NCBI GenBank assembly: GCA_000697665.1
Contig: KL197709.1
Coordinates: 1,549,791-1,613,790, forward strand
DNA: 64,000 bases
Reading direction: 5' to 3'
Origin: Jaapia argillacea MUCL 33604
Lineage: Eukaryota > Basidiomycota > Agaricomycetes > Jaapiales > Jaapiaceae
This document shows, in pieces, positions 5,332 to 9,089 of this stretch. A program made the position numbers and the translations under genes. Under the pieces are notes generated by a model, which was not told the DNA's origin, searched no databases, and worked only from the letters and a program-made list of their open reading frames with translations. Numbering within the stretch: the first letter of the stretch is position 1; each line of letters opens with the position of its first letter.

Positions 5332-5709
5332 TCACCTGGACATGAGCTCAACCTCTCGCCCATTTTGTATTGCTTCTCTTTCAAGATCCTGGAGGCATCC
5401 TCGATTTGTTTCAACAGCAATATTTGTATCCAATAGCCGCAGCCTCCGAATCGCACACTGTTGTACTCAACCATCCAACCATCTTTCCCTACACATTATA
5501 GGCTTCCATTCTTTGAAGCATCATAAATAACTGGCTTCGCATTTACAATCGCAACAATGAGTTTCGCAGTGTTGTCAGAACATAACTGTGTCATACCTCT
5601 GCGATGTGTCGAGATAGATAGATAGATAGATAGATAGGTAGATACGCGGCGTGGTCCCGTTGAAGAACTGCCGGTTTGTGTGGAAGCGCCCAGGCTCAGG
5701 AGCTAACCA
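5332..5709. other. intergenic, CAF16 3' flank
   Basis: This is non-coding sequence between the CAF16 stop and the first palindromic element. Its one feature is a GATA-type microsatellite at 5613-5644. Confidence 0.5.
5613..5644. repeat. (GATA)n microsatellite
   Basis: Seven to eight GATA units in tandem, with one GGTA interruption near the 3' end. It lies in the 3' flank of the CAF16-like gene, about 70 bp before the first palindromic element. Confidence 0.9.
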
Positions 5710-6351
5710 CACCTTAAACAGACCCGGCTGTAAAATGGTAGAATATCCTGAACATGATCCTTACCATTGCCTCAATTTGTCGAGCGGTTTGGGGTGGGAA
5801 TACAGTCGACAGCTAAGTCAAAATGTGATAACAGGTTCGACGAGACCCCATAGCCGATGCTCAAACTCTGAATTTGTCACAACCGACCAAATTTAGAATT
5901 TAGCGCTCAGATAAGTGGCTTGGCATATTCCAACACAAATGCAAAGTATTGTCACAGCAGCATAGACAAAGCAAATGCTGATCTTTTTGTTTACCTTTGC
6001 TGTGGTTGCATACCCTTCGTAACCATGACAACACACTGAAGAATAGGATATGCGGCTGCAGCAAAGGTAAACAAAAAGATCAGCTTTCACTTTGTCTATG
6101 CGACGGTGACAATACTTTGCATTTGTGTCGGAATATGCCAAGCCACTTATTCGTGCACCAAATTCCAAATTTGGTCCATTGTGGCAAATTGAGAGTTCGA
6201 GCATTGGCTGTGGGGTCTCGCCAAACCCGTTATCACATTTTGACCAAGTTGTCGACTTTATTCCCACCCCAAATCCCTCAACAAATTGAGGCAATGGTAA
6301 GGATCATATTCAGGATATTCTAACATCTCACAGTCGGGTCTGTTTAAGGTG
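5710..6351. mobile_element. palindromic foldback MITE, copy 1 (642 bp)
   Basis: The whole element is an inverted repeat with arms of about 300 bp around a central spacer at roughly 6001-6060; bases 5991-6000 pair exactly with 6061-6070. By eye the arms are about 86-88% identical. The ends read CACCTTAAACAGACCCG and its reverse complement. CCA stands just outside both ends, suggesting a 3-bp target-site duplication. Nothing inside encodes a protein: long ORFs here are translations of the palindrome. The 3-bp duplication and CACC end suggest a non-autonomous element of the CACTA/CMC type, but this is a guess. Copy 2 has the same length and related ends. Confidence 0.85.
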
Positions 6352-6405
6352 CCACACACCACAGGTGAACACTGCAAACAACATGGCCACCTTTCTAACC
6401 GTAGA
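6352..6405. other. 54-bp spacer between two palindromic elements
   Basis: Unique sequence separates the two elements. It begins CCACACACC and ends CCGTAGA. Each putative 3-bp target-site copy (CCA, AGA) lies at an edge. Confidence 0.6.
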
Positions 6406-7047
6406 CACCGTAAACAGAACCGACTTTGTCACGGTGGCAAATCCTCAATGTGAGACACCACATTGCCTCCATAAGTTGTAGAGCATGTCACGGTCACGCA
6501 GCCATCACGGAGTTTAAGTGCAGCCACAACTTTGTGAAGGGAGCAAACTTTATGCACAAATTCTAAGTTTATCGACTAGCCCAAATATAGAATGTGGGCT
6601 TTGGATAAGTGACCGAAATAAATGCAAGGCAACAAGGTAATATATTTTCTTGTCGCAAAAGTACACTTTGCAACGAGCCCTTTCTTTTTCTTTGTGGTGG
6701 GCACATACCCGCGGTAAACACTGTTTTGGGGTGGTTACCAGAGTATGTGCCCACCACAAAGGAAAAGAAAGGGCTCATAGCAAGGCGCACTTTTTGTGAC
6801 AAGAAAATATATTATCTTGTTGCCTTGCATTTATTTCGATCACTTATCCAAAGCCCACATTCTATATTTGGGCTAGTCGATAAAGTTAGAATTTGTGCCT
6901 AAAGTTTGCTCCCTTCACAAAGCTGTGGCTGCACTTAAACTCCGTGATGGCTGCGTGACTGCGACATGCTCTTGCAACTTATGGGGGCAATGTGGCGTCT
7001 CGCATTGAGGATTTGCCACCGTCACAAAGTCGGTTCTGTTTACGGTG
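6406..7047. mobile_element. palindromic foldback MITE, copy 2 (642 bp)
   Basis: A second full-length inverted repeat of exactly the same length as copy 1. The ends read CACCGTAAACAGAACCG and its reverse complement; bases 6701-6708 pair with 6743-6750 at the centre. The arms look about 93% identical, higher than in copy 1, so this copy seems younger. AGA flanks both ends (3-bp duplication). It shares the terminal CACC(T/G)TAAACAGA(C/A)CCG, an internal CCAAAT.TAGAAT followed by GATAAGTG, and a central CATACCC with copy 1, while other parts differ strongly. The right end is only 136 bp from the start codon of the AIR1/2 gene. Confidence 0.87.
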
Positions 7048-7183
7048 AGATCCACGGACGTCCCACCAGCAGCCAGAAGACAGACCATCACTCAGCCTCG
7101 AGCGTCGTCGGCAATGGCCGAATAAGGAAGCAAGACCTGAAAGTTGTTTCGCCACCGTCATCCAACTGGCAGCATACATTTTC
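7048..7183 (+). promoter_or_regulatory. AIR1/2 core promoter and 5' UTR
   Basis: Only 136 bp separate the right end of palindromic copy 2 from the ATG. The transcription start of the AIR1/2 gene must lie here or inside the element, so the element may supply promoter sequence. Confidence 0.45.
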
Positions 7184-9089
7184 ATGGCTCCTGAAATACT
7201 CGATCTGACGGCCAGCTCATCTCCCTGCATCGCAGTCATAGATCTCGATGCTGATGAGGGAACCATCACCCCTACCGGCAGCACAAAGCGCAAAGGATCT
7301 GGGAAGGAGGTGCCCAAGAAGAGGTCGAAGAAAAACAAGCAGAACAAGACTACCGGAGATGACGGAGAGGTGTTGGAGACATCCAGAGAGCAGTCGGCTG
7401 ACAGGGAAGACACTTCTCCGCTCTTCTTTGTCGATGTAGAACCTGCAGTGATACCGGGGGATGTGGCGGTAGAGGGCAAGAGCATTCAACCCCTCGTGTT
7501 GGAAACCGAGGAGACGTCCAGGTCTGAGCCAACTGGGAAGATTCTTCTTCCTGCCCACGTCTCGCTCTACGGAGAAGGGGTTGTGCCCATTGAAATCATC
7601 CCTTCCCTGGATCCAGCATCAGACGACGAGGATTATATCGAGTACCTCGACTATGATGACCGCAAGGTACGTTATGTATTCTATTTCTTTTTCACCAGCC
7701 TTCATATCTGGATACCCAGGCCCCAGGCATGTTGCGGTACTTTGAAGACCAGGCTGAAGAAGCGAAACAGACTAAAGTTGTCTGTAAGCATTGTGGAGCA
7801 GAAGGTGAACACAAGACAAAAGAGTGTCCTGTGCAAATAGTATGTCCTTTCCGAAACAGGTGTTGATGCGGTGCTTATGGCGAACGACAACCAGTGCCTT
7901 ACTTGTGGAGCCCGTGATGAACATTCAACTCGCAGTTGTCCCATTAGTAAGACGTGTTACTCCTGTGGAATGAAAGGCCATCTCAATAGGGTGTGTTCTC
8001 CTTCCCACTCTTGTCATACTGTCTCTTCAACACATCTCAGACTAGACCTGCCCAAATCGACAATCCCTTCGCCATAATGGTGACGTTGGGAATTATGATG
8101 ATTGCGACAGATGCGGTTCGTCTCGCCATAACACCAATGTTTGTTGCATCATCTTGTCTGGAGTATAATCAGTAGCTAATGCTCCAGCTTAGGAATGCCC
8201 CACATTCTGGCGCATATACGACTACGTGGCCGATCAAGACCGCGATGCGATTTTGACATTGAGGCGCACCAAACGGAAGTTAGGCATTGGAAATGGTGGC
8301 GAGGGCTACATTGCTACAGACGAGTGGTGCTATAACTGTGGCGAATGTGGTCACTGGGGAGACGTGCGTTTTGCCTGGACCTGACATGGAGAGTCAACTA
8401 ACGGACCTCTCTTCCAGGATTGTCATATGTTGCCACATCCATACGATTGCCCTAAGGAACCGTCCGCGTTCAGCTCACACAACACCATGTCGGGCCCGTT
8501 CTTTGACACGTCTCAGGACGCTTCCTCGTCACGAAGAGAACCTAGAGACTGGGAGTCTAACAACAACAAACTGCCTGATGGATGGGGTTTCGACGCGCCT
8601 ATGAATGTTGGAAAGGAGGGGAAGAAGAAGAGCAGAACACGTATGGAAGACCGGGCGAAGGTGCAGCAGGAAGAGGATGACGATCCTGATGATTGGTTTG
8701 GGAATGCACAAAATGTCAAGAATCGGGGCATGCTTCCGGGCCCATCTCGGAGTCGTGACAGAGTCAACACGACAGCTCCCAATTCCAAGAGGCCGAACTT
8801 TAACTTCAAGAAAGAACGTGGACGTGACGACAGGTCAACTGTTGCTGAGCCTCCTCACGGTGGGAGCTTGCTCAGTCGACTTCAAGACCCTCCAGGCCGT
8901 GCTCCAGACCGAGGTGACTATGGTGGATCTCGAGAAAGACCTTTGCAGGTTCGTGGAGCTGCGAAGAATCCATCGAATTCCCGGTCCCACGAACCTCCTT
9001 CGCGTAGAGCGGTTTCAGGTTCCGACCGAGACATGACAAGTCGGCGAGACGAGAGAGGCCCGAGATACAAGGGTGGTTATGCAAACTAA
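7184..9089 (+). CDS. AIR1: AIR1/AIR2-like CCHC zinc-knuckle protein (TRAMP complex)
   Basis: Six exons (7184-7666, 7720-7839, 7895-7990, 8046-8138, 8193-8363, 8418-9089) give 544 residues. Splicing assembles five zinc knuckles in a row: CKHCGAEGEHKTKECP, CLTCGARDEHSTRSCP, CYSCGMKGHLNRTCP, CDRCGSSRHNTNECP and CYNCGECGHWGDDC. Introns fall between or inside knuckles. The N-terminus is acidic with a basic nuclear-localisation-like KKRSKKNKQNK; the C-terminus is rich in Arg, Gly and Ser. In yeast, Air1/2 are the RNA-binding subunits of TRAMP, which adenylates nuclear RNA for exosome decay. The order and spacing of knuckles fit that family well. The palindromic element directly upstream may affect expression. 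Confidence 0.85.

What the first reader, a model, noticed from the sequence alone, without database searches (positions are those of the whole stretch)
5710..7047. Two adjacent palindromic elements of identical length, one family
Seen: 5710-6351 and 6406-7047 are each complete inverted repeats and, by my count, both exactly 642 bp. Their ends share CACC(T/G)TAAACAGA(C/A)CCG, and they share a few internal blocks and a central CATACCC, yet most of the arm sequence differs between copies. Each is flanked by a 3-bp direct repeat (CCA; AGA). They sit 54 bp apart. Inference: a non-autonomous foldback DNA transposon family whose total length and symmetry are conserved while its sequence drifts, possibly CACTA/CMC-like. 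I know of no named fungal family with these ends.
Basis: partly seen in the sequence, partly recalled or inferred. Interest (0 to 1): 0.72.

Follow-up and report, generated by a model that had tools for sequence, protein, structure and literature searches.

The report
Mirror-image jumping-DNA family in a fungus
Two side-by-side mirror-image DNA elements in a fungal chromosome belong to one family of small jumping elements that carry no recognisable gene, and in this family the two halves of each element have largely changed together over time instead of drifting apart.

Summary
In detail: window 5710-6351 and 6406-7047 are fold-back palindromes of 642 bp each, 54 bp apart, flanked by CCA and AGA repeats. 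They are transposons. The 43.7 Mb source genome yields 28 loci: five subfamilies (A, B, D, E, F) plus one odd end (list). Sixteen full-length copies are 641-666 bp. Exact 3-bp target duplications flank 18 of 19 elements with both flanks read; one A copy sits inside another, a natural empty-site test.

The equal 642 bp is coincidence: two other B copies are 661 and 665 bp, and B1 lost 20 bp in its loop. What is conserved is symmetry. In a tree of 32 arms, both arms of A, of B, of D+E and of F group together. In seven between-subfamily pairs 37-120 sites changed in both arms together, against 0-11 shared arm differences. The asymmetric loop is kept in D/E and B/F, which points to arm-to-arm conversion.

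CAC...GTG ends and 3-bp duplications fit CMC/EnSpm (CACTA-like) transposons, but no transposase gene with these ends was found. Best reading: a non-autonomous fold-back family mobilised in trans.

The parts
5707..5709 (.). left 3-bp target duplication CCA of element A1
5710..6016 (+). element A1, left arm
   Evidence: I1
6017..6044 (.). element A1, asymmetric loop; GTAACCATGACAAC at 6019-6032
6045..6351 (-). element A1, right arm (inverted)
   Evidence: I1
6352..6354 (.). right 3-bp target duplication CCA of element A1
6403..6405 (.). left 3-bp target duplication AGA of element B1
6406..6708 (+). element B1, left arm
   Evidence: I2, I3, I5
6709..6742 (.). element B1, loop; 20 bp present in B57 and B43 are missing here
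6743..7047 (-). element B1, right arm (inverted)
   Evidence: I2, I3, I5
7048..7050 (.). right 3-bp target duplication AGA of element B1

Best explanation
Both palindromes are non-autonomous fold-back (MITE-like) cut-and-paste transposons of one family with five subfamilies. A transposase supplied in trans, most likely of CMC/EnSpm type, recognises the shared ends (CAC, three variable bases, AAACA, and a subterminal block with CATTGCCT) and inserts the element with a 3-bp duplication, favouring T first and A third in the target. Shown: past mobility (target duplications, nested insertion), family structure, and concerted change of the two arms. Inferred: the enzyme and its recognition of these blocks, and that arm identity is renewed by conversion between the two arms (repair of mismatches in a hairpin or cruciform, or repair of one arm from the other after breakage) while the asymmetric loop is left alone.
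For: 3-bp duplications at 18 of 19 elements with both flanks read, against 0-2 of 19 at seven shifted offsets. A51n lies in A51h with duplication ACA, and the host copy without it is 642 bp. Subfamilies share ends and blocks along the arm; one representative each, all 10 pairs, align above shuffles (z 9.5-43). Arm tree (16 elements, 32 arms): A 100/100, B 99/98, D+E 100/100, F 99/98 each hold both arms; the left/right label is not significantly clustered (82 of 500 shuffles as low). Sites changed in both arms: E4/E40 18, D54/E40 37, A14/B43 98, A14/D54 120; after removing CpG-type transitions 13, 31, 93, 111, against a rough 0.05-0.14 expected from parallel change. Gap columns shared by both arms of one copy: 13 of 17 in A14/B43, 21 of 25 in B43/D54. 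Loop kept: D/E centres 0.79-0.83 identical in the better orientation against 0.60-0.61 in the other; B/F 0.64-0.70 against 0.50-0.54.
Against: No transposase gene flanked by these ends was found (the list was cut at 100 of 164). Three of 13 Transposase_21 hits (C26, C32, C12) were read within 10 kb and showed no convincing ends; a fourth (C17) showed no family end opposite C17:129462; nine were not read. C69, C81 and the interiors on C23 and C26 could not be read. Recent copies show little or no conversion: F17/F55 0 joint sites and 57 inherited; A1/A10 0 and 25; A1/A51n 1 and 27. In D43/D54 all 4 joint sites are CpG-type, and in B1/B57 3 of 5. In E4/E40 17 of 18 joint changes are transitions. 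F55 has no duplication. A loops match other subfamilies only weakly.
Confidence: 0.72

Rival explanations
1. Each subfamily was founded by a fresh inverted duplication of half an element (snap-back synthesis), so arms look concerted because each palindrome is newly made, not because arms are converted.
For: Both arms of each subfamily group together, and young copies then drift without conversion (F17/F55).
Against: D and E share the same asymmetric loop (0.79-0.83 identity in the better orientation), as do B and F (0.64-0.70), while 37-50 (two D/E pairs) and 73 (B43/F17) sites changed in both arms; a new snap-back palindrome would remake the centre. It stays open for A, whose loops match the others weakly.
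Confidence: 0.2
2. Base pairing is kept by selection on a transcribed hairpin (dsRNA or small-RNA source); joint changes are compensatory mutations.
For: Very stable fold (as DNA); changes in both arms are common; E4/E40 joint changes are 17 transitions to 1 transversion.
Against: Arm mismatches are near balance between G-U and A-C types over 16 elements (222 and 218, my addition; by subfamily A 95/108, B 35/33, D 19/20, E 32/21, F 41/36; strand of a transcript unknown). Joint changes between subfamilies are rich in transversions (54 of 98 in A14/B43; 73 of 113 in B43/D54) and include gaps. No Rfam match in 5600-7150.
Confidence: 0.08
3. The elements are moved by a PIF/Harbinger-type transposase (3-bp duplications, T first / A third preference).
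For: 3-bp duplications; T first in 12 and A third in 9 of 18 duplications (P 4e-5 against base composition); the genome has 27 DDE_Tnp_4 hits.
Against: Only 2 of 18 duplications are TWA; ends are CAC..GTG; none of the 27 hits is on contigs C23, C26, C69 or C81, where long candidates lie.
Confidence: 0.15
4. Host-derived palindromes or assembly artefacts rather than transposons.
For: None beyond palindromy, a known source of assembly error (recalled).
Against: 28 loci on many contigs, 18 of 19 with 3-bp duplications, a nested copy, and subfamily structure.
Confidence: 0.01

Closest known systems
EnSpm/CACTA (CMC) DNA transposons of fungi, as described in PMC12730594 (passages read)
   Same: CAC..GTG termini and 3-bp target duplications
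   Different: Here the whole element is a palindrome without a recognised gene; no transposase seen; terminal letters after CAC differ from the recalled CACTA/CACTG
Galileo and other Foldback-type elements (PMC3573991, passages read)
   Same: Long inverted arms; the two arms of copies within a subfamily are described as nearly identical, and the authors propose that long arms attract recombination and conversion
   Different: Galileo has transposase-coding copies and is placed with P elements (abstract in listing); here duplications are 3 bp and the palindrome is nearly complete with a short loop
MITEs with fold-back structure (general class, recalled)
   Same: Short, no recognised gene, terminal inverted repeats, target duplications
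   Different: Here the inverted repeat covers nearly the whole 641-666 bp; only 28 loci found
Plavaka (PMC12730594, passages read)
   Same: Placed in the same CMCT clade by that paper; abundant in this genome (133 domain hits)
   Different: Published ends TGT..ACA (2-bp) or CATCA..TGATG (2-3 bp), unlike these

Membership tests
Non-autonomous DNA transposon (MITE/fold-back) | Terminal inverted repeats with fixed-length target duplications at independent sites | tested here: met
   18 of 19 with 3-bp duplications
Non-autonomous DNA transposon (MITE/fold-back) | No transposase gene inside | tested here: met
   Longest start-to-stop frame inside A1 is 133 aa and inside B1 97 aa; four frames inside the elements gave no Pfam match at E up to 1
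EnSpm/CACTA (CMC) | CAC..GTG termini | tested here: met
   34 of the 38 ends begin CAC, two more (D43) CAT; exceptions A10 left (TAC) and F55 right (TAG)
EnSpm/CACTA (CMC) | 3-bp target duplication | tested here: met
   18 of 19
EnSpm/CACTA (CMC) | Related autonomous element with a CMC transposase | tested here: inconclusive
   None found with these ends; of 13 Transposase_21 hits three were searched for ends, a fourth for family ends only, nine not read
PlavakaA / PlavakaB | TGT..ACA with 2-bp, or CATCA..TGATG with 2-3 bp duplications | tested here: not met
   ends and duplications against PMC12730594
PIF/Harbinger | 3-bp TWA target duplication (TWA recalled) | tested here: not met
   2 of 18 are TWA
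Galileo / P superfamily | 7-bp target duplication (recalled) | tested here: not met
   duplications are 3 bp

The most novel reading that the evidence does not exclude
A transposon family whose full-length palindrome is actively renewed: one arm is copied onto the other at intervals (for instance when the element is single-stranded and folded during gap repair or replication), because the fold-back form itself is needed for mobility or for choosing targets next to resident relatives. On this view the loop with its GTAACCATGG-like core, the conserved arm blocks and the insertion of new copies 13-54 bp from, or inside, older copies are parts of one mechanism.
Probability: 0.18. Interest if true: 0.62.

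Novelty: new member of a known kind. Interest (0 to 1): 0.42.

Why it matters
Long fold-back transposons are known, and conversion between their arms has been proposed (Galileo, PMC3573991, passages). Here five diverged subfamilies in one genome separate three stages: shared ancestry of the palindrome, joint change of both arms between subfamilies with the loop kept in two pairs, and independent drift of arms in young copies. That gives a countable test of arm conversion without an experiment. The close spacing of copies (nested, 13 bp, 54 bp) also makes preferred insertion beside resident relatives testable.

Tried and rejected
Exact length conservation: rejected, since full-length B copies are 642, 661 and 665 bp and B1 has a 20 bp loop deletion. 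RNA-level selection: no consistent G-U excess, no Rfam match. CpG decay as the cause of joint changes: a small part of them between subfamilies (3-9 sites in each of seven pairs with 37-120), but 3 of 5 in B1/B57 and all 4 in D43/D54. Transposase_21 gene on C17 as partner of the end at C17:129462: region read; the long inverted repeats around it end differently and no family end follows. Transposase_21 loci on C26, C32 and C12: only weak 10-of-14 end matches in C26 and C32, none at 11 of 13 in the three, and no family ends. Isolated 13-mer matches on C61, C25 and C5:773048: read and judged chance. Pfam scans beside single ends: six frames of L001 and four of six of L009, and stubs of the C23 and C26 insertions, gave no transposase; one sub-threshold TRM13 match in L009.

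Pattern controls against me: at up to 2 mismatches the 17-mer gave 43 genome hits and its reversed control 42, and the 13-mer 164 against 216, so loose matches alone mean nothing; loci were accepted on arm similarity, paired ends or exact ends. The 24-mer gave 54 against 17 and the 14-mer 52 against 25.

Literature: eight searches (listings) showed no fungal family with these ends in the entries listed; absence from print is not claimed beyond them. Passages only were read of PMC12730594, PMC3573991 and PMC3411680; no supplementary files were looked at.

Weak points: 28 loci counts partial copies (C63, C10:372877, C18, C1:301205, C1:3275619, C6, C17:129462) whose second end was not found. The tree and site tables use 16 of 28 loci; dropped are the two deleted copies (B10d, F5), A5, the two interrupted E copies and the seven partial ones. 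The clustering simulation assumes uniform insertion, with some partial loci placed approximately. The expected joint changes come from a simple formula based on single-arm changes. An end-finding slip (16 of 19) was corrected.

Full report
Observation. Window 5710-6351 and 6406-7047 are two palindromes of 642 bp each, separated by 54 bp. Arms are 87% complementary with a 28 nt loop in the first and 88-96% in blocks with a 34 nt loop in the second. Their end pattern CACCKTAAACAGAMCCG is found exactly at the four ends and, without mismatch, nowhere else in the window. Each is flanked by a 3-bp direct repeat, CCA and AGA. As DNA the first folds far better than shuffled sequence. The longest start-to-stop frames inside are 133 and 97 aa, four frames tested give no Pfam match, and Rfam has no match.

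Family. The window lies in a 43.7 Mb genome in 95 contigs, rich in Plavaka transposase domains (133 hits), which suggests a mushroom-forming fungus (inference). Searches with the ends and with whole elements give 28 loci: A 10, B 6, D 2, E 5, F 4 and one further end at C17:129462 (my count, listed; these searches give lower bounds). Sixteen full-length copies, after leaving out later insertions in two, measure A 641-643, B 642, 661, 665, D 666, E 666, F 653. Two further copies with both ends are internally deleted: B10d 247 bp and F5 443 bp. Copies within a subfamily are 87-97% identical. Between subfamilies identity over alignment columns is 0.56-0.79, with alignment scores 9.5 to 43 standard deviations above shuffles (one representative each, 10 pairs). 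They share terminal and internal blocks: CAC, AAACA, CATTGCCT, and a GTAACCATGG-like apex, altered in A and partial in B. So they descend from one palindromic ancestor (inference). The equal 642 bp of the two window elements is coincidence: B1 has lost 20 bp at its loop relative to B57 and B43.

Mobility. For the 19 elements with both outer flanks read, 18 have an exact 3-bp duplication; shifted controls give 0 to 2 of 19. The exception, F55, has a decayed right end. An earlier run of the same table had the ends of E40 and F5 misplaced and gave 16 of 19. T is first in 12 and A is last in 9 of 18 duplications. On C51 one A copy is inserted in another with duplication ACA; without it the host copy is 642 bp. 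A22 carries another insertion with an 8-bp duplication, and A5 is interrupted too.

Clustering. A1 and B1 are 54 bp apart, B43 and D43 13 bp apart, A51n lies within A51h, and F17 is 1.5 kb from A17 (coordinates). With 28 loci placed at random, three or more pairs within 60 bp or nested occurred in 0 of 5000 simulations for the whole genome, 0 of 5000 for a tenth of it, and 9 of 5000 for a twentieth. The neighbours belong to different subfamilies in two of the three cases, so local duplication is not the cause there. Preferred insertion next to resident relatives is a possible reason (inference).

Concerted arms. In a maximum-likelihood tree of 32 arms from 16 elements, the arms of A (100/100), B (99/98), D+E (100/100) and F (99/98) each form one group holding both sides (bootstrap / SH-aLRT), whatever orientation is chosen. 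The left/right label is not clustered beyond shuffles (82 of 500 as low). Inside F, and partly inside A, left and right arms separate. Counting sites in pairs of copies: A14/B43 have 98 sites where both arms of one copy differ from both arms of the other, and 5 where an arm difference is shared; A14/D54 120 and 0; B43/D54 113 and 5; A14/F17 87 and 4; B43/F17 73 and 11; D43/E4 50 and 3; D54/E40 37 and 3. Removing CpG-type transitions leaves 93, 111, 108, 80, 70, 43 and 31, where a simple estimate of parallel change gives 0.05-0.45. Within subfamilies the picture is mixed: E4/E40 18 joint (13 after CpG removal, 17 of the 18 transitions), B57/B43 15 (10), B1/B43 14 (10), A14/A22 11 (8), B1/B57 5 (2), D43/D54 4 (0), F17/F55 0 joint with 57 inherited arm differences, A1/A51n 1 with 27 and A1/A10 0 with 25. 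Arms are therefore homogenised between amplification bursts, or in master copies, and drift apart in young copies.

How arms are kept alike. The asymmetric loop is shared by D and E (0.79-0.83 identity in the better orientation, 0.60-0.61 in the other) and by B and F (0.64-0.70 against 0.50-0.54) although their arms changed jointly. That favours conversion between existing arms over making a new palindrome; for A the loops match the other subfamilies only weakly. In E4/E40 the orientation that best fits the arms (0.878 against 0.863) is opposite to the one that fits the loop, as recombination between inverted arms would produce, but the margin is small. Selection on a transcript is unlikely: arm mismatches show no consistent G-U excess (222 G-U, 218 A-C over 16 elements), and joint changes between subfamilies include many transversions and shared gaps. 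Mismatch repair inside a hairpin or cruciform, or repair of one arm from the other after excision, are the candidate routes (inference from established repair pathways).

Which enzyme. Kojima 2025 (PMC12730594, passages read) gives CAC..GTG ends and 3-bp duplications for fungal EnSpm and different ends for Plavaka. The present family fits EnSpm/CMC by these two features. A partner gene was not found. Transposase_21 has 13 hits. Three loci (C26, C32, C12) were read within 10 kb and searched for CA..TG ends with duplications, and a fourth (C17) for family ends; none was convincing; nine were not read. DDE_Tnp_4 has 27 hits, none on C23, C26, C69 or C81. By their query coordinates the C23 and C26 loci look like E copies interrupted by later insertions (inference).

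Comparison. The nearest described behaviour is that of Galileo in Drosophila, where the authors propose that long arms attract recombination and conversion (PMC3573991, passages read). The difference here is the 3-bp duplication, the nearly complete palindrome and the direct site counts across five subfamilies. The family is a new, unnamed member of the fold-back/MITE kind as far as the listed searches show; interest lies in the arm record, not in a new class of element.

Noticed in passing
G000 C22:416953-417540 inside copy A22: 588 bp insertion with ends TAGTGCCGTCC..GGACAGCACTA and an 8-bp duplication ATGGTAAG, hAT-like by duplication length.
   Followed up: partly
G000 C5:1542735-1543140 inside copy A5: About 400 bp insertion with ends CAGTCATYACCCGGTC and apparent TA duplication, read; A5 also holds a run of N.
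   Followed up: no
G000 C69:102232 and C81:65911: E-type 24-mer ends, identical to each other, without a matching opposite end; possible long relatives.
   Followed up: partly
L060/L061 (G000 C17:131112-141209): Transposase_21 gene lying between two inverted repeats of about 500 bp, 69% identical, whose facing ends begin CATCGACACAAAG.
   Followed up: partly
element centres, e.g. window 6019-6032: GTAACCATGGYAAC-like motif in D54, E4, E40 and F centres, altered in A and D43 and partial in B, resembles the RFX X-box consensus (recalled).
   Followed up: no
window 5612-5643: AGAT microsatellite about 70 bp upstream of the first element.
   Followed up: no
16 full-length family copies: CpG depleted and TpG/CpA enriched against the window as a whole (CpG o/e 0.21-0.86 against 0.92), as methylation-linked decay would give.
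   Followed up: partly
window 7049-7840: Stop-to-stop open frame of 263 codons beginning right after the second element, no Pfam match; the elements may lie just upstream of a gene.
   Followed up: partly
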